NCBI GenBank assembly: GCA_036872755.1
Contig: JAVHNS010000019.1
Span: 496,001 to 560,000 of the forward strand
Origin: Orbilia blumenaviensis
Lineage: Eukaryota; Ascomycota; Orbiliomycetes; Orbiliales; Orbiliaceae
Length of the DNA stretch: 64,000 nucleotides
Direction: 5' to 3'
This document shows positions 18,190 to 44,100 of this stretch, piece by piece. The notes beneath the pieces are model-generated. The model did not search any database. It had not been told where the DNA came from and worked only from the letters and a program-made list of their open reading frames with translations. The position numbers were made by a program, and so were the translations under genes. Within the stretch, counting starts at the first letter, position 1, and every line of letters begins with the position of its first letter.

Positions 18190-19601
18190 TGATTTTGGTC
18201 GGAAGGCTGGCTTTTTTCTTTCCAGAGAATTTCTATGGCTTGAATGTTAGTCGGAGCAGCAGCAAGGTCTCATACTTATTTCCAGACGGCTCTAGCAGAT
18301 TTATATTTTCCTCCTTTTTCTTCTTCTTCGTATGGATTTATGATATTTACTATGAAATAAGTGCCCTTCGGCAACTTTCCCAGAGATCTATTGATATATC
18401 TAGTCCAAATATTTTAAGAGATGATATAGTATCGATCAGAGGCCTCTCGATGCTTGAAATTATCGCTACATTGCATGCATCACTCTATTCATGTTAGTCT
18501 GGTATCTCAAACGGCAGACGCCATATTGATTATTTTTCATGTCTCATTCCTGCATGCATCCCGCTGGGATATAACTGAAGTTCTAAAATCATGTGCAGGA
18601 TGCCAAGCGAGCGGCCTCACTGCAAGTGGGCTGACTTCTCCTCACGATCCAGAGCATGCATGCAGCGGTACCCGGCATTGCCTCTCGTTCGCTGTGGCAT
18701 GGCATGGCAGCCTTTTCCATTTCAGCTCCCCCATTGCAAGTGTAATATGATGGATTCGATCTTGTTTGGCCCTTGCCCGCCTTCAATTCCACGGCTCTCT
18801 CCCTTTCCCCCTCTAAACGATATCGAGTCGGATGTTCGTATTTGATTCCTTTTATAATATGTTTTTGGCCGCTTTTTGAGTTGGAGAAAGATCAAAAGAG
18901 ACGGTCCCATTTTGGGGCGTTTTTTTCCTTTGGAGAGTCGCCCAAAACAGGCATAGAAATAATCTGCTGCTCGAGTTTTCCGAAAGCCCCAAGTCAAAAC
19001 TCCTTGCAACCTGGCTCATGCAACCCGGAATTGTCGGCCATGAGATAGAGTTATTCCTGTTAACTATAATGGACCTCGTCGACGAAACTGATTCAGTGGA
19101 GGAATTATCGTCATCGAATTATCATATCCTCTGGCTTTTACAATAACATTTTTTCTTTCTCTCTCGGTCTCCGTCTCATCGATTGTCTTTCCGTTTCCTT
19201 TCGAGTTTTTTTTGTTGCATTGGGTGGGACTAACAAGGGCAGAAAAACGAGGTCCTTTTTAGGTGGGTGGTCTCATCACCTCCTCCTCCAGCCGGCCAGC
19301 CAGCTGAGAGGGGAGAAGAGAATCGAATCTCCCCTCATCCCTCAGTTAGCACAGCAGAACAAATAAAAATAAAAATTCTATGCATACAATCGTTAGACTA
19401 TTGATGGATTCCTCTGAATAAAATACTAACACGACTTCATCCGTATCTTTATAGTCCATAGATAACTACTTATCTTTTCCTACATACCTGAGTTATTTCC
19501 ATCAACCAACGAATTTTAGAAAACCCAAAGAGAGAGAGAGAAAAACCACTTTTCGGGGCCCTCTGATCGCAGAGAAACCATATAATCCATAACAAACCAG
19601 G
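18190..19601. other. Intergenic: leader and promoter of the demethylase gene
   Basis: C/T-rich blocks at 19140-19210 and a purine tract (GAGAGAGAGAGA) just upstream of 19602 mark the likely promoter and leader. Short upstream ATGs occur (for example 19381 and 19404), which could act as uORFs if the transcript starts that far out. No other gene was recognised. Confidence 0.45.
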
Positions 19602-22600
19602 ATGGTACTAGAATGCAGGTCCATGGGGACCCGCAAGCCGTCCGGAAGCAGACTTTCTCATGGCTTTTTTACACCTGAAGAGAAACACTCAAAAACCGAT
19701 TACATCGGTGCCTTTGCCGATGGATTAATTGGAAGACGGGATCGTAGGGTCACCAAGGATGATATGTGTATAGACCTGAACCGTTCTCCTGCATTCACTG
19801 CCGCTAGAATGATTATCGAGGACGATATCGATGGATCCATCTGTAGCAGGAGTTCTTCGAGAACTGGGGATAGTGAGAGGACATCACATACCAGTTTCGA
19901 AGTACAGGACCACCTTCACGGCCAGCAGCAGCAGCAGCAGCGGAGGCAGCAGCAGCAGAACACAGGCGAGCCGTATTCACCAGCAATTGCCGTGCATTAT
20001 GGCAGTACCGGTCCGTATCCGACGCCACAGCCCGCATCGAAGCCGCAGACCCCCGTACAGAATCTCAAAATGCAACGTTTCTCGAGTCTGCCAGGTGTTG
20101 ATCTGTCGAATCTTCCTCCTACTCCGGATTCTTTACGGGGTACCCCGTTATCCGGGTTAGGGCTAGATGGGAACAGGAGGAGAAGGCAACCTTCGCCTGA
20201 GATTCCAAGTGCAGATGACCTTGGATTTGGGAAAGAAATTACCCCTACTAGAGAAGTGGAGGCCGATGAGGAGGTGGAGCAGCAGCAGCAGGAGGCTGAA
20301 TGGGAGGATATAGAAGAGGACGGTGATGAAGAGACTATCGAGGAGGATAACATAGTCTATGAATCAATGTCTGAAGTCTATGAGAGTGAAATAGAACAGA
20401 ATGGTCTCGTCTCTAGCGAGGAAGAGGATGAAGAGGAGGAGAAGGGAGAGGATCAGGCTGGCTATGCTTACGAGAATGAAGATTATGAAGATGATGGAGG
20501 GGGGGAAGAGGAGGAAGGGGGGACATTATTGCATTTTAGAAGAGCACTATCTCTTTCTGATGATATTGATACGGCTGATGATAATGAAGGCGAAGGTTTA
20601 GATGAAGAGGACGGCCCTTATACTCCAAAACTGCGTGCCAAACTCGAGGCCTCCCCTCAGCTATCTCCTGTCCTCGAAGCAGCAACGACTTTTCTACCCC
20701 CTCCTTCCATCACCACCTCTTCTCTTCCCATCACCATCACCACCTCTCCAGATTTACCCCTTCCATCTACAGAACCTATTCCTCTTGTCAATCGTACCTT
20801 CAAGTTGACTTCTCATACATTCTCACGTCCGATTTACTCATCTTCTGCTCCTCGACTTTCGTTGTCACGACCTTCTTCTTCTTCTCGTTTTTCTGCTTCT
20901 CTCGTGACCAGCCAACCACGAAGTTCTTCTGAAGGTCTGCCACCACCAGCTGCCCTCCCATCCGGTTTATCTACATCGGATCTCTCTCTGGACACTCTAG
21001 TCTCACCATCATCACAATCTCCTCCCCATCCTTCTGTTGTCCACCTTCTTTCAGATTTCATTGGGGTTCCACCTGCTTCACCTTCTCCATCTGTTCTCTC
21101 TGCCCATCATCCCGCGGATTCGACCAGCATCAATCCATCAGGTTTGTCTATTAATTATTCATCGAAGTCCTCGGTTGAACCCCTCTCTGGGCCCTCCAGC
21201 AGGTTTTCGTCAAGATCACCTTTGGATTCATCCTTGAGCCATTCCATCGACTCCTCACCTTCTCTCTCTCCTAGCAAGCCATTGGACACAATGACACCGT
21301 TCATCAGAACAGTCAAGGCGGACCAGGGTATCCTGCTGGAATCCAGCATAGAGAGACGCTACCCGAAGAAGCAGGTACCAGGGCGAGCTGGGAGTTGCAT
21401 CCCAGTGAACCCATCAGAGTTTCGCGAGTATGCCCAAGAGTGCATCTGGGCCGCAGATGCGGGCAGACTGAACCCCTGGAACCTCCATGAGGGAGAGTAC
21501 GGACTCCTTCGGGAGCATTTGAATCAGTTACATGTCACCACGTACCTGAACATTCGAAATGGAATTCTTCGGCTCTGGTTGAAGAATTCCAAGAAGCGGG
21601 TGACAAAGGAGCAGGCGATGGGGTGTTGCAAGGAGGAGAGGTACTTCGGGCTGGCCGAGGTTGCCTTGGGCTGGCTGACGAGAAGTGGTTATATTAACCA
21701 CGGGTGTCTTGAGATACCCACAAACTTGTCAGCCGGCCCAGGCACCCGGCGAAGAAAAATAATCGCTGTCATCGGGGCTGGGATTTCGGGGCTGGCAACG
21801 GCACGACAACTGGAGGCACTCCTGGCCTCGGCTGGTGAGCGTTCTGGTGGGCCCGGTGTTCCCGACGTTGTTGTCTTCGAAGGAAGACACCGTCTGGGTG
21901 GTCGAGTTTACTCGGCCATTTTAACACCGGGCCCCCATAGCCTCCCAGAAGGACTGGAGCCGGCCGTCGACATTGGTGGACAGATCGTGATGGGTTACGA
22001 TGCCCGGAACCCCCTTGCCGCTCTGATCGTAGATCAGTTGGGAATTCCTTTCCATACTATTGGAAAGGCGTTCCCGATCCACGATCACGACGGTAAGGTG
22101 ATCGGGGATGGGCGGGATACCCAGATCGAGCACGTCCACAACGATATCCTGAGGCGGATATCGAAATTTAGTTACAAAGAGCCGCCGCCGCAGACCGCCC
22201 ATGGTGATGTCAAGTACATCACCAAATGCAAAGACCCATGGGGCATAGGGGGACCGCCGCTTTCAGAAGCCCAAGGAGAGGGGCATGTGGCCCCGCCCGT
22301 TCCTCTCATGGAGAAGGAACGGGAGAAGAAGGAGATACGGGCCTTCCGAAAAACCCTCGAGGGGCACAACGTCAAGGTAGCAAAGGGCTACCATAGGGGG
22401 CAAGCTAGCCTCGGGAAGACCATGGAGGGGGTCTTCTCGGGCTATGCAAGCCTCCTGAAGACGGACGCCAGGGACCTCCGCCTCTTCAACTGGTTCCAAG
22501 CCAACCTGGAGTACGGGAACGCCGTCGAGGTGAACGGCTCCAGTTTGGAGCATTGGGACCAGGACGACGGGAACGAGCCGGCCGGAGCCCATACGATGAT

Positions 22601-24314
22601 TATGGGCGGGTACTCCGAAGTGGCCAAGGGCTTGAGCTCCACCCCCTCGGAGCTCAAGGTCCGCTTGGACCATGTTGTGAAGAGGATCACGTATGATCCT
22701 AAGAACAAAAGGGGGAAAGGTGTCACTCTGGAGTTCGCAGATGGCACCAGTTTCAAGGCCGACAAGGTGGTGGTTACGCTGCCTCTGGGGGTGCTGAAGA
22801 GGGAGGGTGTGGAGTTTGACCCGCCATTGCCGCGGGCCAAACGGGACGCAATCAAGCGTCTCGGCTTCGGCCTCCTAAACAAGGTCATCATGGTGTATGA
22901 GAAAGCGTTCTGGGACACTGATAACTCTGGGTTTGGTTGTTTGCGAGCGGCCGAAGAGGGTCAAGACGAGGACTCTCTGTCGAGTTACGAGAAGAACCGT
23001 GGGCGGTTTTATATCTGGTGGAACACCACTGATGCAGTGGGCCGGCCAACTTTGGTCGGTTTAATGGTTGGCAATGCAGCAGAACAGGTCGAACACGAGG
23101 ACCCCGAGGAAGTTATGAAGGAGGCCACTTCAATACTGAAGAAATGCTGGGGAGAGGACAAAGTCCCGAACAGACCAGAGGAGTGCTTTGTGACTAAGTG
23201 GCGCAAAGATCCCTTTGCATTCGGGTCTTACTCTTACGTTGCTCCCGGTTCGACTGGCGCCGATTACGATACTATTGCTGAGCCCATTAACGACCAGATT
23301 TTCTTCGCTGGGGAACATACAAGTCGGAAGTACCCCGCTACCGTTCATGGCGCATACATCAGCGGTCTTCGTGTAGCTGGAGAAGTTGCAGATTCTATCC
23401 TAGGTCCTATCCAGGTCCCAAGTCCATTGGTCGGACAGCGCATAATGAAATCTAGAACGGAGACCACCGTTGAGACTATGGCCACTAGAACGACCTCAGC
23501 CAGCAATGTCCAGACGACGAAATCCACCAGGGTCCAGAGAACACAGACGACCAAAGTCCAGGAAGTGAAGACCGGCTCTCGAATCTCGGTAACCAGTACT
23601 ATCGTGCAGCAGAAGACCAAACGCAGGGCAGCGTATGAAGAGGAAAGCAGGGTTCAGGCGAAGAGGGCCAGGACGCAGGGTTCTCAAGCAGCAGAACCCC
23701 AAAGGAAGAAGAAGAAGAAGCGCAAGGCAGTCGACGGAGAGGACGGAGTCCAGGCCAAGAGACATCGGACACAGAGCGTTCAAGCAGAACCCTCGAAGCA
23801 GAAGAGAAAGCGCAAGGCAGCTGATGAACCCGAACTCAAGGTTCAAAGCACGAAGAAAGCGCGGCCGTCTAGTACTGAGGCTAAACCAGAAGAGGATGTT
23901 GCGCCTATTGATCCCAAGCCCGAGGGGCCGAAGAAAGATACCGCCAATCCATTCTTGATTTACCAAAAGGATTTCTTTAAGATAGCCCAGAGCAGAGCAA
24001 ACCAGACAAAGCGCGAACAAACCGGCGAGCCAGACGCTAAAGCTGAACGGAACGAAGTCCGAATCGTTCTTGGTGATATGTGGAGGAATGCTGCTGCGGA
24101 TACCAAACGCCGATATCAAAATCAAGCGGACCAGAACAAGCGCGACAATATCCTAAGGGTGAATGACTACAAGCGCCAGATTATTGCATGGGAAGAGAGA
24201 CAAAGTCAAGGTTCTGTAGTTGCTTCTTCATCCCCAGCTCTTGCTCTCTCAGCGGTATATCCCACTCCGGCCAGCACAACCCCGGCAGTTGATGATCGAG
24301 CTGCTCCCGTATGA
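19602..24314 (+). CDS. LSD1-type histone lysine demethylase: SWIRM + FAD amine oxidase + HMG box
   Basis: A single uninterrupted exon of 1570 residues. It is predicted to oxidatively demethylate mono/dimethyl-lysine on histone H3 in chromatin complexes. Residues 1-560 are disordered: a Gln tract (about 107-120), long Asp/Glu-rich blocks (about 210-345) and a Ser/Pro-rich stretch. The SWIRM domain follows (about 583-706, with LHVTTYLNIRNGILRLW). The FAD Rossmann motif VIGAGISGLATARQLE is at about 721, followed by HRLGGRVYS. The FAD-contacting lysine lies in GFGLLNK, and the C-terminal FAD motif AGEHTSRKYPATVHGAYISG is at about 1236. The insert between the two halves of the amine oxidase domain is short and not coiled-coil like the animal Tower domain. 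About 1339-1422 holds three KRKA/VQAKR basic repeats, then an HMG-box-like segment (about 1447-1530). This architecture matches the fungal LSD1/HdmA group. Met8 (19623) is an alternative start. Confidence 0.95.
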   Translation: MVLECRSMGTRKPSGSRLSHGFFTPEEKHSKTDYIGAFADGLIGRRDRRVTKDDMCIDLNRSPAFTAARMIIEDDIDGSICSRSSSRTGDSERTSHTSFEVQDHLHGQQQQQQRRQQQQNTGEPYSPAIAVHYGSTGPYPTPQPASKPQTPVQNLKMQRFSSLPGVDLSNLPPTPDSLRGTPLSGLGLDGNRRRRQPSPEIPSADDLGFGKEITPTREVEADEEVEQQQQEAEWEDIEEDGDEETIEEDNIVYESMSEVYESEIEQNGLVSSEEEDEEEEKGEDQAGYAYENEDYEDDGGGEEEEGGTLLHFRRALSLSDDIDTADDNEGEGLDEEDGPYTPKLRAKLEASPQLSPVLEAATTFLPPPSITTSSLPITITTSPDLPLPSTEPIPLVNRTFKLTSHTFSRPIYSSSAPRLSLSRPSSSSRFSASLVTSQPRSSSEGLPPPAALPSGLSTSDLSLDTLVSPSSQSPPHPSVVHLLSDFIGVPPASPSPSVLSAHHPADSTSINPSGLSINYSSKSSVEPLSGPSSRFSSRSPLDSSLSHSIDSSPSLSPSKPLDTMTPFIRTVKADQGILLESSIERRYPKKQVPGRAGSCIPVNPSEFREYAQECIWAADAGRLNPWNLHEGEYGLLREHLNQLHVTTYLNIRNGILRLWLKNSKKRVTKEQAMGCCKEERYFGLAEVALGWLTRSGYINHGCLEIPTNLSAGPGTRRRKIIAVIGAGISGLATARQLEALLASAGERSGGPGVPDVVVFEGRHRLGGRVYSAILTPGPHSLPEGLEPAVDIGGQIVMGYDARNPLAALIVDQLGIPFHTIGKAFPIHDHDGKVIGDGRDTQIEHVHNDILRRISKFSYKEPPPQTAHGDVKYITKCKDPWGIGGPPLSEAQGEGHVAPPVPLMEKEREKKEIRAFRKTLEGHNVKVAKGYHRGQASLGKTMEGVFSGYASLLKTDARDLRLFNWFQANLEYGNAVEVNGSSLEHWDQDDGNEPAGAHTMIMGGYSEVAKGLSSTPSELKVRLDHVVKRITYDPKNKRGKGVTLEFADGTSFKADKVVVTLPLGVLKREGVEFDPPLPRAKRDAIKRLGFGLLNKVIMVYEKAFWDTDNSGFGCLRAAEEGQDEDSLSSYEKNRGRFYIWWNTTDAVGRPTLVGLMVGNAAEQVEHEDPEEVMKEATSILKKCWGEDKVPNRPEECFVTKWRKDPFAFGSYSYVAPGSTGADYDTIAEPINDQIFFAGEHTSRKYPATVHGAYISGLRVAGEVADSILGPIQVPSPLVGQRIMKSRTETTVETMATRTTSASNVQTTKSTRVQRTQTTKVQEVKTGSRISVTSTIVQQKTKRRAAYEEESRVQAKRARTQGSQAAEPQRKKKKKRKAVDGEDGVQAKRHRTQSVQAEPSKQKRKRKAADEPELKVQSTKKARPSSTEAKPEEDVAPIDPKPEGPKKDTANPFLIYQKDFFKIAQSRANQTKREQTGEPDAKAERNEVRIVLGDMWRNAAADTKRRYQNQADQNKRDNILRVNDYKRQIIAWEERQSQGSVVASSSPALALSAVYPTPASTTPAVDDRAAPV

Positions 24315-28953: not shown

Positions 28954-30427
28954 ATGGCCAGCAACTTCTTCGACCTTAAGAAGCGGAAGGAGGCTGCAGC
29001 TGCCAGCTCGTCGTCCAAACAAAAGGCGGGCCTGTCGCAAGCTGCAGATAGGCCGGTGCCTTGGGTTGAAAAATAGTTAGTGATACTCATGATAATTCAA
29101 ACGAAGAGACTAAGGCTAATTGTTTCATACCTCTAGTCGTCCGAAAACCCTGAGCGATGTTACAGCCCAAGATCATACTATATCGGTTCTCAGAAGAACA
29201 TTACAGTCTTCGAATGTAGGCACCCAATTAACTTACAGCACAGCTTGGAAAACCCTTGTCTGAAATACCAAAAATTTCGAATCGACAAGCTAATGTCATG
29301 ATGTATTGATTATAGTTGCCTCATATGCTTTTCTATGGACCACCGGGAACCGGTAAAACATCTACAATCCTCGCCCTAGCAAAGGAATTATACGGGTTCG
29401 TCACCTTTAGCTCCAGCTTCAGCCACAGTCACAGCTACAGCTACAACAAATCGCATATGAACGAACAATAAAATTGACAAAGACCTTTAGTCCGGAGCTT
29501 ATGAAAACCCGTGTTCTCGAACTAAACGCTTCCGACGAGCGCGGTATCTCTATCGTCCGTGAGAAGGTCAAAAACTTCGCCAAAATCGCAATTTCCACCA
29601 CAACTGCTGCCAATGCTTCGAAATACCCTTGCCCTCCTTACAAAATTATCATCCTCGACGAGGCGGATTCTATGACACAAGATGCGCAATCAGCACTAAG
29701 AAGAACGATGGAAACATATTCGAAAATCACTAGATTCTGCTTGATTTGCAACTATGTTACGAGGATTATCGACCCGTTGGCCAGTAGATGTTCGAAATTT
29801 AGGTTTAAACCGCTGGACGAGGGGAATGCAAGACTTCGACTAAGTAGTATTGCCGACGCTGAGGGGGTTAAGCACCAGGAGGGCGTGATCGATACTTTGA
29901 TCAAAGTTGCAGATGGAGATTTGAGAAAAGCGATCACTTTCTTACAATCAGCGGCGAGACTACATGGGGCAGTTAAGGAGAGGACAGGAGATGATATGGA
30001 AGTTGATAGTGGGGCTAAGGGCGGTGAGATTACTGTCAGGTCGATAGAGGAAATCGCTGGTGTCATCCCGGACAAGACAATAGATGATTTGATGCAGAGT
30101 ATGGAGCCAAGACCGCATGGGCAAGCTGTCTATACCCCTGTTTCGACAGTAGTCCAAGATATTGTCGCAGATGGGTGGAGCGCTGCCCAGGTTCTCCTGC
30201 AGGTAAGTATCTCTCTCCTTCGTTATTCTAAAGCTCATGCTAATATGGTTCTCTAGCTATACAACCGATTGGTCTTCAGTGACATGCTCACTGGCGACCA
30301 GAAAAACCAGATCGTCGCAATCTTTTCAGAGATAGATAAGAGACTCGTGGATGGCGCTGACGAACATCTGGTCACATTGGACATGTCTCTAAGGATCGCT
30401 GGCGTCTTGGGAGATACCGGTTCGTAG
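28954..30427 (+). CDS. RFC2: Replication factor C subunit (Rfc2 of yeast, RFC4 of human)
   Basis: Five exons: 28954-29075, 29137-29215, 29316-29395, 29491-30202 and 30257-30427, giving 387 residues. It is an AAA+ subunit of the RFC clamp loader, which opens and loads PCNA at primer ends and also works in checkpoint loaders. Visible motifs: RFC box II PWVEKYRPK (35-44, spanning intron 1), Walker [12 protein letters not shown] (73-83), ELNASDERG (104-112), Walker [10 protein letters not shown] (147-155), the sensor/arginine finger region with SRC (192-194) and the sensor-2 GDLRKA motif. The C-terminal collar domain ends in [20 protein letters not shown] and the [18 protein letters not shown] block are closer to Rfc2/RFC4 than to the other small subunits. 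Length is slightly above the yeast protein owing to a linker around EVDSGAKGG. Confidence 0.96.
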
Positions 30428-33617: not shown

Positions 33618-35095
33618 TCAATCATCGAAGATTATCAGCGGATCATCTTTCTCTATCCCATCAGTGTAAGGCCAGCCCGTCGCGTCTGGAAAACTGTTTT
33701 GGTCTGAAAATTGATCTTCCGGCGGGCCGTCTTCCTCCCTGGCCACCTGCTTCTTCCACCATATCAAATGCTCCTTCTCTACACCACTTTGCTTATTATC
33801 AGTTGCTGGTGGCTTCCCTCCCGTAAACCAGTCATCATCTCCGTACACAATACTTTTTATCTGGTTTCTAATCTGTTCTTCTATTTCTCCTTCAATCTCG
33901 AGATCGTTTGGTACCTCGTTACCAGGGGTCACGCGGCTCCAGTCGACGTCAATCAAATCATCGAGCGAGTATTTTTTGCCCGGTATCGCTTCGCTCAGGT
34001 CATCGATATTCCTGGCATCTGGGTAGAACCCATACTCCTTAGGAACTCGATGAAACCAAGGATGAAACGTTATTTTGGTGTGTTCTGCTCCCAGGCATCC
34101 AAAGTATACTGCGCCCGTCTCCTGCTTCGAACTCTTCTTTGGGCCAGCTATCAAACCTCGATATTCCATTTTCCACTTTACGGGCCTGCCTTTCAATCTA
34201 TCCATAATGGTCCTTTTAGCTGCGGTTCCAGACCCTCGACAAACGGGCCACATATGAGTAAAACCCCAGGGTAATATGCTTTAAAACCTTTGTTAGTATT
34301 GAATTAGTAGTTTTGTGGTATATCAGTGGCCCCACGTACTTTGTTTGCGTATCCTTCTCAGTGAGCCATACAATCCAAATCATTCCTACCTGGTCTCTTT
34401 TTGTGCAACTTTCCATCTTAACTTCCCCATACCTCCCTGGAAATACGGCCTTTCTTCCTTGCGGAGTAGGGTAGATTGTCGCTGGGTCGTAGCTTAAACA
34501 CTCTCCTGTTCCGTGATGACGAATGGACCCGGCCCAGTAGGATATCTTCCTGGAGCCGCGTTTAAACATCCGAATAGATCCTTCAAAATCCCAGCGTAGC
34601 ATTGATATGGGGTGGTTGATACTCTCGTCATCACAAAAATTGTTCTTTTTAGGATTGTTACATCGACATGGCCAATAACTTGGTGATTTATCGCCAAAAT
34701 TTCTGCCGAGGCAGCGCTGGTACTTTTTCTGATCCCCTTGCTCGAACGCTGAAGAAGACATAACAGGCCCAAATTATTAGTAATCAGATCAAGTTATAGT
34801 GCATATAGATGATATAGGGCAGACAATCCTTACATAGAGCCCCAGTCCAATAATATTTCAGAGGCTTGTCAACATCCCTTCCTATGAAGCCTTTGTCTTC
34901 GTATATATAGAAATTCGGAGGGGTATATGAAACAGCATTTGAGGCATCGTATTTCTCGGAGGCCACTTCGATCGCTGCAGCCCTTTTTGTGAGATCCTCG
35001 GATGACGGTTCTTCAAAACCCCGAACTATAGCTATACATGTAATTATACTCACACCCCAAAGGGCGATCGTTGAATTAATGGAAAATAGTCGCAT
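33618..35095 (-). CDS. Secreted protein of the tandem family, copy A (443 residues)
   Basis: Three exons on the minus strand: 35095-34834, 34748-34340 and 34278-33618. The start gives a signal peptide with core WGVSIITCIAIVRG. An upstream in-frame ATG (35131) would place charged residues before it. I do not recognise a named domain. The conserved block, shared with copy B, begins after intron 1: YQRCLG, CRC, then LRWDFEGSI, YWAGSI with GECLSYDP, and VKMESC before IWIVW. Intron 2 falls just before ILPWGFTHMWPVC. YRGL, VYFGC and FHPWFHRVP follow. The paired C...(V/L)xxxC...W pattern is reminiscent of beta-trefoil (ricin-B-like) repeats, but this is only a resemblance. The last 150 residues are acidic and unique to this copy. 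No GPI tail. Confidence 0.8.
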
Positions 35096-35800
35096 CTTTA
35101 ACTCTCTACGGGTAGGAGTATTTCTGGGCACTCCACCTTAGTTTCTAACTGAGCGTGAGAACAAAAACGTCTATTTATGTAACCAGCAAAAATGCAGTCC
35201 AAATTAGGTCTCTACTGGGTTGAGCTCTAAGACCTACTTCTGTTGCGCATGAGCTTGAGAACTCATTAACCTCAAAAGCTAGGTCACAGTACTTCTATAT
35301 CCCAATTACAATATGTAACAACGTTGACTCCACTGCGGTTCCGGGTTCGGGGCTTCATTCTCGAACTTCAAATTCAAAGTTCTCTTGGGGTACCTATTTA
35401 CAGAGTATTGTGACTTTGTGGCACTGTTCATCCTTACATGTGGCAATGTCCGTAACGTAGCCCTCTCAGTTTCACAACAATATTCCATACAGTGTTGCAT
35501 ACGCTTCAAAGAACGATGACCCAGTCTGATAGTAGTACTACTGTTCATGTCCAATTTTCAGTTTCATGACTACCGTGAATTGGGCTGTAGCTTGATCGAT
35601 TTGGTGGCGTAGAATTGATCCCTGTATACATGCTAACCTAGAGCCACGGCATAGAATTTAGATATTTCGTGCGAATATACAAGTAACTGAATATTTTTTT
35701 TTTTTCCTTTCCTTTTCCTGTGTTTCTCTTTCATTCTTTTCTTTCCTTTTCTTTTCTTTGCAACCTTATCGCCGAAATCCTAACCGAGGCTTAGCTATAG
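35096..35800. other. Intergenic within the secreted-protein cluster
   Basis: Contains copy A's promoter. A C/T-rich tract lies at 35697-35760. A short minus frame at 35306-35554 has no support. Confidence 0.4.
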
Positions 35801-35979
35801 CTAGCTGCCACCATATGAAAGATTCTCAAATTTTCTCCTTGTAGGAACCATAGCTTTTGCAGTATAGTATTTTGTCGTTAGACCACTGTTAGTCTCGTTG
35901 CTCACGCATGTACGATACCCAACGTGCTTAGATGGAAACTGCATAGGCTCTGATGAACCCCGTATATACGTATACCCGT
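35801..35979 (-). pseudogene. Orphan terminal exon between copies A and B
   Basis: About 59 codons open on the minus strand to a TAG at 35801, preceded by a good intron end (branch-like CTAATTATTAATGAGC, then CTTCCTTGCAG). The peptide includes GYTYIRGSSEP, GYRTCVSNE and LTTKYYTAKAMV. No upstream exon with a start codon could be joined in the right phase. It shows no clear similarity to the three neighbours by eye. It may be what remains of another small secreted protein gene. Confidence 0.3.
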
Positions 35980-36481
35980 CTGCAAGGAAGCACAGTAAGC
36001 TCATTAATAATTAGCACATTAAGACAAGGGGTGACATTTTCAGATTGATACCGTGGCGCTGGCATTGCTATTTTAGTGTAGGCCCGCCGACACCATAGTT
36101 ACCGCATCGGCACCCAATCTTAAATCTTTTTGCGCATTTTCATATCCTTGAATTCTAGGGTGTATCTTAGGCGATATTGGTACGATTTCTAGAGATAGCT
36201 TAAATCAATGGATTCTGGTTATAATATTATGCCATCAAGTTGCTACTTAAAGCCTCCTCCGTGTGAGAGATAAGGGCTTGAGTGACCAGCTTAAGTGCTT
36301 GGGCTTAGGACTATAACCTTTCGGATATAGTCAAAGATAGTATAGTTCTAATTATGTCTTAATAAGAACGATCGGATATTCGAGAATTAGATAAGTTGTT
36401 AATTAACAAAGTGCACAAATAAACGCATATGACTATATCTAGAACTTGACGACACCAACGTCTATGATATGGAATTGAGGA

Positions 36482-37795
36482 CTAGGCGAAGTCAATTAGA
36501 TACTTGTTCGCAAATGCATCCAACTGCTTCCCGGTGATATCCAAAGTTTTCACGGTGGCAGCTCTAAAGAACCATGGATGAGGACTTATTGCTGTGTGAT
36601 CACTGTCGTGACAACCAAAGTACGCAGTTCGGCCGGAGGTAGGGTCAGTGTTCCACACCAAACCTCGGTAATGCCTCTCATTAGCTCGTTTCCCTTTAGC
36701 TACACATGTTTGCCATAGGTGAGTAGCTCTTGGTAAAAGTCTATCAAGTTTTGTGGAGGATCCAAGTCAGCCATTCTGTCGTTCAAATATACAAAGACGA
36801 AATATAAATATACTAGGGCATAGGCTGGATTTTCATATACCTTGTCTCAGCATCTTTCCTGAAGACCCATAGCACCCAAAGTTGAGGGTCATCAAATTCG
36901 CCAAAGTTCTGATCGTCGACGCACTTTTCGAGAACAACATCGCCGATTTTTCCATACTGACTGCCCTCGAGAAAAGGAGGCGGGGTTTTAACTGGCCTCC
37001 GGAAGGTCAAGCACTTATCGTTATATGCTGACTCAATATAGCCGTACCAAAGTGGCATTTGTTTTTCGCCACGTGTACCTACAATCTGAACATCGGGTGC
37101 AATATTCACGAACCAATTCTTGTAGATGGCAGGGTGGAGGATTCTCCCTCTAAAATTCCACTGAAATCGCGGACTTGGGGAGTTGATGTTATTATCTTTC
37201 TCGCACGACCCCGTCGAACAAGTACAGTGATCGATTTCAACCTCATTCGGGAGCCCCTCGTCTTCGTCTTTCCTAGTGCGTGCGCCTAAACACCTTAACT
37301 CCTTTGTAGATGAGCTAAGGATATTTTTTGACTTCTTCCCTGTGTCAAGTCCTACTCCTTTCAACTTGCTGAATTCTATAGGACGGTTTCAAGGCAGCCA
37401 AGTTAGACCATCATATAATCATCAAACAATAATAAACTCAAGGTCATAACAAATTTAAAATTAAAAAACGGTGGGCCAGCGAGTAATCCCGATATAATAA
37501 ACAAGATTATATGCACCCAGTTGACTAACGTGTGCTTACCTAGTGCGCCAGACCATAAATACTCAGGAGACCATCTCAGCTCCGATACAGTACTATCCGT
37601 ATTGATACTGTCGTAATTATAATACTTCGGGGGTATGATTTTTGAGGAAGCTTTCGCTCTTGGGTTCAGGCTTTGCCCAGTTGATCTCCCTTCCAGATCG
37701 AAACTGAGAATTGGAACTGCTGCTTGAACATGGCACACTACTAGTACCAAGGCTCCGAGAGACGATATGACAGTATATCTGCCATCTGGCTTCAT
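36482..37795 (-). CDS. Secreted protein of the tandem family, copy B (339 residues)
   Basis: Three exons on the minus strand: 37795-37540, 37375-36871 and 36740-36482. The signal peptide is YTVISSLGALVLVVCHVQA. The layout matches copy A segment by segment. WSGAL sits before intron 1 (phase 1). Then come RCLG, a CTCS.GSC cysteine cluster, FQWNFRGRI, LWYGYI with DKCLTFRRP, VVLEKC and LWVLWVF. Intron 2 (phase 2) lies just before LLPRATHLWQTC. Exon 3 carries HYRGLVWN, AYFGCHDSDHT and PHPWFFRAATV, clearly homologous to YRGL...YFGC...FHPWFHRVP of copy A. It ends about 35 residues later, so copy A's long acidic tail is absent. No GPI signal. Function unknown: a secreted, probably disulfide-stabilised protein. 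Confidence 0.8.
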
Positions 37796-38953
37796 GTTTT
37801 ATGAGAATTACTATTCTATAATACTGTGTGAGCGAAGGCTAGGAGTAGAACAATCGTAGGGATAGCACTGGCAAACCTATTATTTCAATTTTTATTTATA
37901 CTTACGCAGCTCTTTCCTTGGCTACATTTAGTAAAGTTCGTAGTGTAATTATAGTTATGGTTATAAAACTATGGATTTACTCAGGTTTTTCTACGCCAGG
38001 CTGCTACTTGAGGGATGCCGGGGTGCCCATTTGATTATGATTTCAAGTTTTCTAGACGCAAAGCCAGAGTTAGTTACATTTGGATATTAATACCGAAATT
38101 ATAATAATAGCCTGAAAAAGAACTAACCTAGGGGCAAAGCCAAATCGTATACGACCCCCTTCGATGAAGCAAAGGTTATAGTCCTATGTACCTAGAGAAG
38201 CACAGCCTCTAATGTTAGTTGAAAACAACGTTTAGCTTCTTTGGTATTTCCTGGTTCGATCATGGCTAAAAGTTTATGGACATCACGAGCATTTAACAAC
38301 CGATGAGCTCTTGTTAACGCCCCATGCACCGATATAATCTTTCAACCCTTTCCTGTGCAGTTGTGCCACAGGTCGGCCGTCAAGGTAAGGTATTTTACAA
38401 ATTTAAATGAAGCATCCAACCAACATAGGCCCACGACCTTAGATATAGTTGTGGGGTCAGCCGCATTTGTTTCATGGATGACCATACATGACTCCTAGGG
38501 CCAAAGTTAAAGGTATTATAGTACGCCAGTGTTAGCTTAGAGGGTCGTCTTATTTCGACTCACACTAGTGCCAACCGTGTGGCATCGCGGGTAACAAGAT
38601 TAATTTCATGTTGTATGAGACTGGACCCGGATAACGAAATACCGAAACACCATGAAGAAGTCATATATCACACCTAGAAATACCACCCTACCAGGTTACC
38701 AGCTACTCAACAAATACCAGCACTGATAATAGTATTGTAAAATTTTCTCCGAATTTATATAATGATGTGCTCGGGGTAAAATATAGGTTGCTTGTTTCTA
38801 GAGCGCATGGATTCGGGGCTGGTTAGAAAGTACACAGCCTGAGAAAGACAAATTCGTCTCGCCTGCACAACAAGACGAGCAGTTTCAAAAGAAGTAGAGT
38901 AATATACACAGCCGTATTCGAATATTCAATAAAAGAGAAAAACAAACAATTAG
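37796..38953. other. Intergenic within the secreted-protein cluster
   Basis: AT-rich sequence between copies B and C. No open frame of note and no recognisable transposon domain. Confidence 0.45.
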
Positions 38954-40204
38954 CTACACGACAAACTTGGGATCGGGGTTTTCCCTTCTATTCCGATCGA
39001 ACTCCGGATAACTTGGGAACAGATGTGTGCACATCTGCATCCAAAAGACATCGGGGGTCCTATCACCTTGCCCTTCCTTTCGCATCGCCTCGTTGCAGAA
39101 ACCGGTTTCTAGCATATGTTCCCCTTGGCAGCACAAAATGGTTTGGTATCTATCAAAAACACCCTCCACCCTATACATGTGTTCTTCGATGTTGTCGTAG
39201 TACCAGTACCCCCACACCGCCGTGAGGGCTTCGCCCTTCCACAAGCCTTTTCCACAGCCGTAGGATACGAGCGAGTGAATTGGCTTCGCGAGGATGGTTG
39301 GTTCCTGATCTTCTGGGCAAGTATGGTTCCACATTCTCGGGATAAAGCTATATTCCGATAAAACAAGATATGAAATTTGTTAGTTATAGATACTATACAA
39401 GGTGGGTCGAGTTTCGAGATCCTCTGGTCCGAATAAATCGCTCGATTAGGTTAAAGTAAACTTACTTCAGTTTAGAATCCGGGTTTCGCCAATCTTTCAG
39501 CTTGAAATACTGATACTGGTTCTGGAGATCACATCTTTCCGAAGTTAAGTTGCCATAGGTCGTGGCTTGGTATGGTAAATCGGGTATTGCCTCATTTGCC
39601 AGTGCTGGTTTCCACTCCATGCACCGCCCAGTTCCCATGTTCCCTACTAGACCCTCAAAGTTTGCATAAGGGTCCTCCGTGGCGGAATTGAACATAGTGG
39701 ATAAAAGCCACTGCGCTCCCATGTCGGCAGGGGCACCCGCTTCGGTGCAAACACGTGAGCCGAAGGGCTGCCATGTTGAGTCCGGGCCCGACCAATCGAT
39801 GAGACACAACCCTCGTCGGTCTTCGGCTTTTTCAACCCAGCCTATGCAAGAGATTGTAAGTATCGTATGCATTTACGATTGTAAATCTTAAATCAACGTA
39901 AAACTAGGCCTAGAGATCTGATTTAATTCTCGAGCGTCGGGCAGTATGTGTTCCAATTCCTTTAGTTACAGTTGTTATATACTTAAGTAGTAGCATAATT
40001 TTAATATATAAAACAAAATTGCTGAGTTTACTTACGGAATCTATAGGGTGGTGCCCCGCCGAATATTTCAACTGGTGGATATGTTGGCTCCTTAATGCCT
40101 TCATAAACCTGTGCAGAAACTCCAGCAGCCATGCATACTGAAACTACGCCCACGAGGGAGATTCTCTGTCTAATACTCCAGCTGCTAGACTTAGAAAACT
40201 TCAT
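38954..40204 (-). CDS. Secreted protein of the tandem family, copy C (312 residues)
   Basis: Three exons on the minus strand: 40204-40036, 39841-39466 and 39347-38954. Signal peptide core: ISLVGVVSVCMAAGVSA before QVYEG. Sequence similarity to copies A and B is weak, but the gene has the same exon count, the same intron phases (1 then 2), and intron 2 in the same place, just before FIPRMWNHTC (compare ILPWGFTHMWPVC and LLPRATHLWQTC). Exon 2 shows two CxxW/C...C units: GLCLIDWSGP to SRVC, and GRCMEWKPA to SERC followed by YQYFKL. These resemble the C...C...(Q)xW layout of the other copies. Exon 3 is unusual: rich in Trp, Tyr and Cys (YGCGKGLWKG, ILCCQGEHM, FWMQMC). No GPI signal. It is either the most diverged paralogue or a related gene with a replaced C-terminal half. 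Confidence 0.75.
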
Positions 40205-41140: not shown

Positions 41141-44100
41141 CTATGCACGTTTCGATTGTTTTCTAATCGGCGCATCTGGTTTGCGTCTTTTGGGGGGCGC
41201 GGAGTTCTCCTTAAGTCGTTTCGTTTTCTGTTTGGTTTCCTCCATTAGTTGGGATAAAGATGGCATATCCTCATCGGATTCGAATTCTTCAATGTGTCCT
41301 CTTTTTTTTGTTGTTGTTGGCGATGGAGTTGGTGATACGGATGGCGACGACCCATGCCTCGAGGGCGATGATACAATCAAAATGGGATCTTTCTTTGAAG
41401 AGCGAACGGTCCCCTTTCCCACTATATTTCCAGACTGCGGCTTAACTGACCGAAGAGTAGGCTTCGCCACACTTGTACCAGAAACCCTAGTTGGCGGTTT
41501 GAATGGTTTAAGGTTGCTCATCGAGGCCTGTGGAAGTGCCAAAGGCGCAGCTTGTGCCTCAGAGCTTGGGCCTTTGGGAGGATCAGGAGTTGGACTTCTA
41601 AGAGCTGGTGACGGCGTTGCACTATACACCTCATAGTGGTCCTGAAACTTTTGGATGTCCCAATCATTCATAGTATGCATTTTTTGAAGGAGCGACACCA
41701 TTAGGTTCGTGGCACGACTGTGTCCGACGCGGCCAGTCGGTTGGAGCTTTCGTTGAGATTCCGGATAAGCATCGATTCGTGGAGCGCTAATTAGTTCATC
41801 GTCGTCACCATAAAGAGATTGGTAGCTCATTCGTAGCTCTCGTTCTTGCCGTTCTGATAGACGATACGATGATTCTGGTATTGGTTCTGGGAACGGCTCT
41901 TCCTCAGATTCACCAAGCACACTAGAGTCCTCATCATCATCACTTAGCACCAGTGGTGCCTGGTTTTTTCCCTTTCGCTTGACCTGGATTGGTTTCTTGG
42001 ACTTTGGAGTAAGACCCTCAAGCGCGGCAGCGGTAGTAAACCCTGTTTCGACGCCATCGGGCATAAACCACTTCTTCGGCGGGGCCTTTTTCTTTCCCTT
42101 TCGCTTGCCTGGAGGCGATGCCCTTCCACTCTCAGGTGTTATATCAATTGTCATTTTGACACATTCGGTTTCGATATCGTTTGGTAGAATCCTCGGCGAG
42201 ATTTCTTTGTCATATGTAAATGTGTTCCCCTTTGTGATTGCGTTCTGCATCCATCGATAGTTATCCTGCGCGCGCTCCCATTTGGCTTCTTCTTTACCCT
42301 CCGTCACCAAAACAACGACGCCACCAGCCCTTTTACGGCCTGTTCTACCCATTCGTTGCAGCATACGAATTGGTGAAGCAGAGGCATCAAAACAAACGAT
42401 GAAATCTACTTCACCGATATCTAAACCCTCCTCACCAATACTTGTCGCAACCAAGACATTAAACTCCCCTCTTTTGAATCTCTCAACAGTTTCCTGTTGT
42501 ACCTTTTGCGACATGCCTTCCCCAGTAGTTTTAGCGCTTTGACCAACGAATATTCGGGGTTTGATTATCGGCTCGTGTATCTTTAACACTCTGAGGATCT
42601 CCTCTCCACTTTTCCGATAGTTTGAAAAGACCATGACTCTCGTGTCTTTTTCGCCTCGTTCGGCAGCTTCCGTGAAGTGACGTAATATAGTGCCGCAGAG
42701 GTAATCAAGTTTAGGGTGACCGAGAAACTCTGATTCATTCATCAAAGCCCTGCATCTATTCATCATAGAAAGATATTCCTTGTCCTGAAAAAAGGCAGAT
42801 ACTGCCTTCCCTCCCCCGGAAGACTTTGTGGATTTCTCGTTCTGAAACTCCTTGAGGTAGTCGTAGAATGGGCGGATTCCGTGATATAGTAGAAGCTCAA
42901 AACTATAGGCAAGCGAACTTAGGTTGGCGAAGAGACTAAGTATCGACCCCTTCAATGCTGGAGGTGCAGCTCTAGCCGCTGGACTAACAAAATATTTCTT
43001 CCGGGCTTCCGTTAATGCAAATGCCGTCAAGTTTGTTGGATCAGTGATATAGCAAACTCTCATGTCATTTAGTTTTTTGAGCATCGGTTTAAGGGACTTC
43101 CCGAACAGATCGCGAATCATCGTGATTTCGTCTGTCAGCGGAAATTTCTCCAGCTGTATTTCTCGCTGGTGAATATATTCCCTTATATCGATAGATTCTT
43201 CAGTTCGGATTTCCGTTCGAGCAATGCCCAACGAGGTGATGACCTCCTGCACAGATTCGACCTTCGATCCCGGTGTAGCAGTCAGGGCCATAACCCGAAA
43301 GCTATTATTGAAGCGGCGTATGTACCGAATTACTTTGCAGTAGGCATATTCACCTGTAGCACGGTGGGCTTCATCAACAACAACAAGCACAATCTTCTTT
43401 GGATCACATCGACCAGATGTCAAATCCGTTTCGAGGGTTTGAGGTGTCAGGAAAAAAAGTCGCTTTTCATTCCAATAGTCCGCTCTGTGGCCTGGCGAGA
43501 CATGTCCCGTTAACAGGCATGTTTCGCTTTTAGGTATGCCTACGATCTTATGGCAGGCATCTACTTGCTGGGCGACAAGCGGCTTTGTAGGTGCCATGAA
43601 GATGATCTGTGACTCAGGCGCCCATCTGTACCAATTGTACATGACCGTAGCAGCAATAAAGGTTTTCCCGAGGCCTAAAGATACACCGCAATTAGATACA
43701 AATCCAATCAACTAGCATAGTTCTTGACATACCAGTAGGCAAAGCCACCAAGACATTTGTGAATAAAGCTCTCTTAGTGATATTAAACTGGTAGTCTCTA
43801 TGTGACACATTTGTTGGGTATATCCATGTTTTTGCGGCTTCTCGATCGATCTTATGGTGTGTGGGCGCTTCGCTATGATTTACCAACCGCCAGCTCCGGG
43901 CAGTAGTTTCCCTTGCCTCTTCCTCGCCAGCCACATCTCCGAACAAAGTTCTCTGCCTTAGTTTACTGGGTGTGGTGTTTGTAGGGGGTGCCGGGCGGAA
44001 GTCTTCTTCCTCGTCAATGATGTCTGAAGAAAATATGTTTTCGAGAAGATCGTCATATTCCTCCTCTACCCTCTGAGCATTTGATGCCTGGCCTGAGGTG

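What the first reader, a model, noticed from the sequence alone, without database searches (positions are those of the whole stretch)
33618..40204. Tandem trio of fast-diverging secreted proteins with conserved gene structure
Seen in the sequence: three consecutive minus-strand genes, each with a signal peptide, three exons, intron 1 in phase 1 and intron 2 in phase 2. Intron 2 falls just before a matching (I/L)(L/I)P...W...C motif in all three. Copies A and B share YRGL, YFGC and HPWF motifs in exon 3; copy C keeps the layout but almost no residues there. Copy A alone has a 150-residue acidic tail. Preserved structure with collapsed sequence identity is what is expected of secreted proteins under diversifying selection, such as effectors or allorecognition and antagonism factors. 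I recognise no named family; the C...C...W rhythm recalls beta-trefoil lectins.
Basis: partly seen in the sequence, partly recalled or inferred. Interest (0 to 1): 0.75.

Follow-up and report, generated by a model that had tools for sequence, protein, structure and literature searches.

The report
Old secreted trio of nematode-trapping fungi
Three neighbouring genes of a fungus from the nematode-trapping group make related secreted, cysteine-rich proteins that seem confined to that group and may be distant, unstudied relatives of sugar-binding beta-trefoil proteins; the trio is real and old, but its role is unknown.

Summary
Genes A, B and C (minus strand, 33618-40204) each have a hydrophobic N-terminus, three exons and introns in phases 1 and 2. 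My B and C models equal database proteins of Orbilia blumenaviensis TWF730. Intron 2 falls in one alignment column in A, B, C and a fourth paralogue, D, on another contig. C is a true distant relative: profile E 2e-6, six shared cysteine positions.

The 'fast-diverging' reading is weak. B and C each group with their own orthologues from other species; the 15 hits found are all Orbilia or Arthrobotrys. C orthologues are 58-64% identical. No RIP-like window was found; dN/dS could not be tested.

Fold: no Pfam, PDB or Foldseek match; AlphaFold failed for B and C. The A/B/D profile matches a ricin-type trefoil repeat in two of three expected places (best score reached by 1 of 400 shuffles), but the signal leans on cysteines and C alone does not match. 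Plausible, not shown.

Best reading: a lineage-specific secreted family, possibly lectin-like. Tandem, diverging secreted orphans are already described in these fungi (PMC3828140 passages).

The parts
40036..40204 (-). Gene C exon 1 (hydrophobic leader)
   Evidence: product identical to P0004
39466..39841 (-). Gene C exon 2, with the middle repeat shared with A, B and D (about 39504-39662)
38954..39347 (-). Gene C exon 3, with a C-terminal extension of its own (about 38957-39205) that holds four further cysteines
   Evidence: helical in a low-confidence model
37540..37795 (-). Gene B exon 1 (hydrophobic leader, to WSGAL)
   Evidence: product identical to P0011
36841..37375 (-). Gene B exon 2, first and middle repeat-like stretches (middle about 36852-37049)
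36482..36740 (-). Gene B exon 3, YRGL, YFGC and HPWF motifs, short tail
34834..35095 (-). Gene A exon 1 (hydrophobic leader, Lys-Arg at residues 37-38)
34340..34748 (-). Gene A exon 2, first and middle repeat-like stretches (middle about 34369-34536)
33618..34278 (-). Gene A exon 3, YRGL, YFGC and HPWF motifs and the 142-residue acidic tail (about 33621-34046)

Best explanation
A, B and C are old paralogues of a secreted, cysteine-rich protein family known so far only from Orbiliaceae, the family of the nematode-trapping fungi; a fourth copy, D, lies on another contig. Shown: common descent, shared gene structure, shared cysteine frame, and hits only in Orbilia and Arthrobotrys in the database searched. 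Inferred: the proteins are secreted; in A and most orthologues a short propeptide is cut at a dibasic (Kex2-type) site; the core of A, B and D folds as a three-lobed, ricin-type beta-trefoil-like domain with a cysteine pair in each lobe, and C is a diverged form of it; the proteins bind glycans at the hyphal or trap surface or on prey or competitors. The acidic tails of A and D and the extension of C would give each paralogue its own partner or place.
For: Common descent: profile comparison of A/B/D with the C family E 2e-6; middle repeat E 1.3e-6, 0 of 100 shuffles as good; one intron 2 column in four genes, and four cysteine columns filled in 16 of 16 rows, a fifth in 15 of 16 (the missing row is cut short), a sixth one column off. 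Restriction: 3, 7 and 5 hits at E <= 1 among 1724, 604 and 5977 candidates, all Orbilia or Arthrobotrys, two of the 15 being the window's own C and B. Trefoil: A/B/D against a ricin-type repeat profile scores 22.5 at the middle and 19.7 at the first repeat, 0 of 300 shuffles reach either; the joined A/B/D and C middle repeat matches nearly the whole repeat, probability 48.5, 0 of 300; first and middle repeats of A/B/D resemble each other, 0 of 100. In 5 of 5 B-type proteins the middle repeat has a QxW. Processing: KR in A, KR or RR in 7 of 7 A and B homologues read.
Against: No Pfam, PDB or Foldseek match. In a first set 1 of 100 shuffles reached the repeat score. With cysteines masked the score falls to 14.1, reached by 6 of 300. 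C alone does not match: 15.0 (5 of 100) and 15.8 (8 of 100). The third repeat resembles neither of the others (51 of 100 each). Regions were chosen after looking at the sequence. The Asp of the usual sugar site (recalled) is missing after the Cys-Leu in A, B and D. B and D of this genome lack the dibasic site. No expression data; glycan binding is untested.
Confidence: 0.35

Rival explanations
1. One reading: secreted effectors or antagonism factors that diverge fast under diversifying selection, with a fold unrelated to trefoils.
For: Secreted, lineage-restricted, no known domain; B and A orthologues are only 40-47% identical; rapid divergence of secreted orphans is described in these fungi (PMC3828140 passages).
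Against: C orthologues are 58-64% identical with long invariant stretches; cysteines and gene structure are kept; no RIP-like window; the trefoil repeat match. Selection itself was not testable.
Confidence: 0.2
2. Proteins of the fungus's own surface: wall- or matrix-bound structural or adhesive proteins, or self-recognition factors, with no role against prey.
For: Acidic, repetitive tails in D and in the O. oligospora homologues of A, of a kind common in wall and matrix proteins (recalled); conserved across species.
Against: No anchor or wall domain found by Pfam; nothing here tells wall from prey.
Confidence: 0.2
3. Secreted protease inhibitors with a beta-trefoil core (as in Kunitz-type or fungal mycocypin inhibitors; comparison recalled).
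For: The same fold class would fit the repeat signal; the usual sugar-contact Asp is missing.
Against: The repeat matched is the ricin-type Cys-Leu...Cys...QxW kind; no inhibitor family in Pfam.
Confidence: 0.08

Closest known systems
Ricin-type beta-trefoil lectin domain (PF00652, PF14200; CBM13)
   Same: Two of three repeat-like stretches of A/B/D align in register with its repeat; a cysteine pair per stretch; QxW in the middle repeat of B-type proteins.
   Different: No Pfam match above cut-off; third repeat unmatched; usual sugar-contact Asp missing; longer loops; tails and extension.
Small secreted orphan proteins of nematode-trapping fungi (PMC3828140, passages seen; CyrA in PMC8568293, passages seen)
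   Same: Secreted, lineage-specific, no Pfam domain, cysteine-rich, tandem copies with divergent sequence.
   Different: The four copies here are 312-443 aa, over the 300 aa limit used there; no RIP-like window here; expression unknown.
CCL2 of Coprinopsis cinerea (PMC3355094, abstract seen)
   Same: Possible fold class and possible glycan target.
   Different: Described as a cytoplasmic fruiting-body lectin; no sequence relation was tested here.

Membership tests
Ricin-type beta-trefoil lectin | Match to the family's profile above its curated cut-off | tested here: not met
   No ricin-type family listed at E <= 1 or E <= 10
Ricin-type beta-trefoil lectin | Three repeats of the ricin type | tested here: inconclusive
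   First and middle repeat of A/B/D match, third does not; C alone not above shuffles
Ricin-type beta-trefoil lectin | QxW motif in each repeat | tested here: inconclusive
   Read by eye: present in the middle repeat of 5 of 5 B-type proteins, absent there in A, its homologues P0001 and P0002, D and the C family; absent in first and third stretches
Ricin-type beta-trefoil lectin | Beta-trefoil structure | tested here: inconclusive
   Models of B and C have mean pLDDT 29.5 and 35.7; Foldseek gave nothing at E <= 0.001
Ricin-type beta-trefoil lectin | Sugar binding | not testable with these tools
   needs a binding assay
Small secreted proteins of nematode-trapping fungi (PMC3828140) | Shorter than 300 aa | tested here: not met
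   A 443, B 349, C 312, D 376 aa; several C and B orthologues are 294-300 aa, some with pieces missing from the gene model
Small secreted proteins of nematode-trapping fungi (PMC3828140) | Lineage-specific, no Pfam domain | tested here: met
   15 hits, all Orbilia or Arthrobotrys; no Pfam match above cut-off
Small secreted proteins of nematode-trapping fungi (PMC3828140) | Marks of RIP | tested here: not met
   No RIP-like 500-base window by my thresholds; indices of A-D like those of the flanking genes
Small secreted proteins of nematode-trapping fungi (PMC3828140) | Induced during infection | not testable with these tools
   no RNA data held

The most novel reading that the evidence does not exclude
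A new, Orbiliaceae-specific branch of secreted trefoil-like proteins, too diverged for the family libraries searched, in which one ancestral gene gave four paralogues with a common cysteine core but different ends (acidic, Pro-Lys repeats, extension with four more cysteines, short), used as a set of glycan binders at the trap-prey interface.
Probability: 0.25. Interest if true: 0.5.

Novelty: new member of a known kind. Interest (0 to 1): 0.3.

Why it matters
If the trefoil reading is right, the family would be a ready set of lineage-specific binders for studying how nematode-trapping fungi recognise prey or competitors, and a case where gene structure and cysteines outlast sequence. If not, it is still a clean, uncharacterised Orbiliaceae family that annotation leaves without a domain.

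Tried and rejected
Naming by Pfam failed (best sub-threshold hits E 0.11-0.67, unrelated names). PDB sequence searches gave nothing credible: none for profile A2, a dextranase at E 0.089 for A3, an antibody at 0.92 for A5, a designed repeat protein at 0.11 for the C extension of one orthologue. AlphaFold on 7-row alignments failed for B and C; Foldseek on those models listed antibodies and unrelated chains, none at E <= 0.001, and is disregarded. The database label 'Ig-like domain-containing' on three B orthologues is not borne out by the Pfam scan.

RIP as the cause of divergence: no sign in the present sequence. A further copy in the window: of 109 matches 30 lie outside the three genes, the best (E 0.007) from D's repetitive tail, the rest E 0.026 or worse. 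dN/dS: not possible, no orthologue DNA in reach. The tree leaves open whether A groups with its O. oligospora homologues, and warns that D's branch is long and its place unsure; A's orthology rests on BLAST identity and locus-tag order.

Papers: the phrase Orbilia blumenaviensis, TWF730 and three A. flagrans locus tags each found 0 papers; the word blumenaviensis found 6, of which I read passages of one; listings only for apart from the abstract of PMC3355094. So no published description of these genes was found, in a library that lacks most subscription papers.
Full report
Where it is. The products of genes C and B are identical to hypothetical proteins TWF730_004773 and TWF730_004772 of Orbilia blumenaviensis, and the contig length given for them, 745281, equals that of the contig holding the window. 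The genome is 42.46 Mb in 23 contigs. The species belongs to Orbiliaceae and is listed among nematode-trapping fungi that hold TrsA orthologues in PMC12377627 (passages).

Anatomy. C: exons 40204-40036, 39841-39466, 39347-38954. B: 37795-37540, 37375-36841, 36740-36482. A: 35095-34834, 34748-34340, 34278-33618. Introns are in phase 1 and phase 2 in all three. A fourth paralogue, D, lies on contig 14 at 621732-620338, minus strand, 376 aa, with the same phases. Searches of the genome with A, B, C and D found these four loci and no other; C found only itself, and each search scores only its best candidates. No further copy is visible in the window. Of ten neighbouring reading frames scanned, six have Pfam matches and four none at E <= 0.01; they include a DEAD/Helicase_C protein at 41141-43711, an AAA protein of RFC type at 29411-30256 and a SWIRM amine oxidase at 19593-24314.

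Homology. By BLASTP in a small all-against-all set, A and B are 23.5% identical (E 4.6e-21), A and D 28% (1.6e-32), B and D 24% (4.8e-21). C as query finds none of A, B, D at E <= 0.01; A and D as queries touch some C orthologues at E 5e-5 to 0.005, and B touches none. Profile comparison of A/B/D with the C family gives probability 89 and E 2e-6; the middle repeat alone gives E 1.3e-6, 0 of 100 column shuffles as good, the third repeat 16.5 (0 of 100, null maximum 16.0), the first repeat is not above shuffles (9 of 100). Intron 2 falls in one alignment column in all four genes by three alignment modes that know nothing of introns; intron 1 does in A, B and D and lies six columns away in C. A, B and D have eight cysteines after the leader. 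Four cysteine columns are filled in 16 of 16 rows, a fifth in 15 of 16 (the missing row, P0010, is cut short), and a sixth lies one column off between C and the rest; the C family has four more near its C-terminus.

Spread and age. At E <= 1 the protein searches gave 3 hits of 1724 candidates for A, 7 of 604 for C and 5 of 5977 for the A/B/D profile; all 15 are Orbilia or Arthrobotrys and two are the window's own C and B. The search needs shared 5-residue words, so remote relatives elsewhere are not excluded. Identity by BLASTP: C orthologues 57.5-64.2%, B orthologues 42-47%, A to O. oligospora 40-46%, the lowest being a gene model with a missing piece. Locus tags suggest, though the DNA was not seen, that B and C are neighbours in O. 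javanica (TWF718_008120/008121) and A. flagrans (DFL_007239/007238), and B and A in O. oligospora TWF569 (009453/009454). In the tree the C family is a clade (100/100), B and its orthologues are a clade (98/98), D joins B (93/87, long branch, place unsure), and A is not resolved with its O. oligospora homologues; the root is a midpoint. Homologues of A were found only in O. oligospora. So B and C, at least, split before these species did. PMC3828140 proposes tandem duplication followed by RIP-governed divergence for small secreted proteins of these fungi (passages); I found no RIP-like 500-base window here by my own thresholds, and the indices of A-D resemble those of flanking genes.

Processing. 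A has Lys-Arg at residues 37-38 and the seven A and B homologues (P0001-P0003, P0012-P0015) have KR or RR in the same stretch (read by eye); B and D of this genome do not. Kex2 cutting is inferred from this and from recalled knowledge.

Fold. No library named it, and the two AlphaFold models are too poor to use. I built a ricin-type repeat profile from 24 repeats of 13 lectin domains, 12 from named actinomycete plasmids and one from this genome. Against it the A/B/D profile scored 22.5 at its middle repeat and 19.7 at its first; in 300 shuffles none reached either, while in a first set 1 of 100 reached the best score. A full trefoil profile of 9 domains gave 22.4 over 15 columns, 0 of 100. The joined A/B/D and C middle repeats gave probability 48.5 over nearly the whole repeat, 0 of 300. 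Within A/B/D the first and middle repeats resemble each other (21.1, 0 of 100). Against: masking cysteines leaves 14.1, reached by 6 of 300; C alone gives 15.0 and 15.8, reached by 5 and 8 of 100; the third repeat of A/B/D resembles neither of the others (51 of 100 each), nor does that of C its middle one (70 of 100); a first-to-middle match within C (1 of 100) is out of register and not counted; two cross-comparisons (first of A/B/D with middle of C, middle of A/B/D with first of C) are at 14 and 9 of 100. Regions were chosen after looking. Reversed profiles score 7.6 and 9.7, at noise. I take the trefoil reading as somewhat better than even for A/B/D and less for C.

Function. Inferred only. 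A leader sequence, lineage restriction and a possible lectin-like core fit a surface or prey-directed glycan binder. PMC4237727 reports ricin-type lectin transcripts expressed by three nematode-trapping fungi during infection (passages), and PMC3355094 a nematotoxic trefoil lectin of another fungus (abstract); neither concerns these genes as far as I saw.

Noticed in passing
L005 (G000:C14, 620338-621732, minus): Fourth paralogue D, with a run of 11 prolines and a DPKPE-type repeat tail; no identical database protein came up, whose profile held D's core.
   Followed up: partly
window 33618-35095: Gene A, though intact in my model, was not returned as an annotated protein of this strain, while B and C were.
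   Followed up: no
P0003, P0013, P0014, P0015: Database models of A and B homologues lack the stretch just after intron 2, probably a wrong acceptor in the annotation.
   Followed up: no
P0001-P0003: O. oligospora homologues of A end in repetitive acidic tails of 232-241 residues, unlike the less repetitive 142-residue tail here.
   Followed up: no
L028 (G000:C5, around 993717-994052): The only PF00652 match found in this genome; it lies next to a reading frame that looks like a glycoside hydrolase by eye.
   Followed up: no
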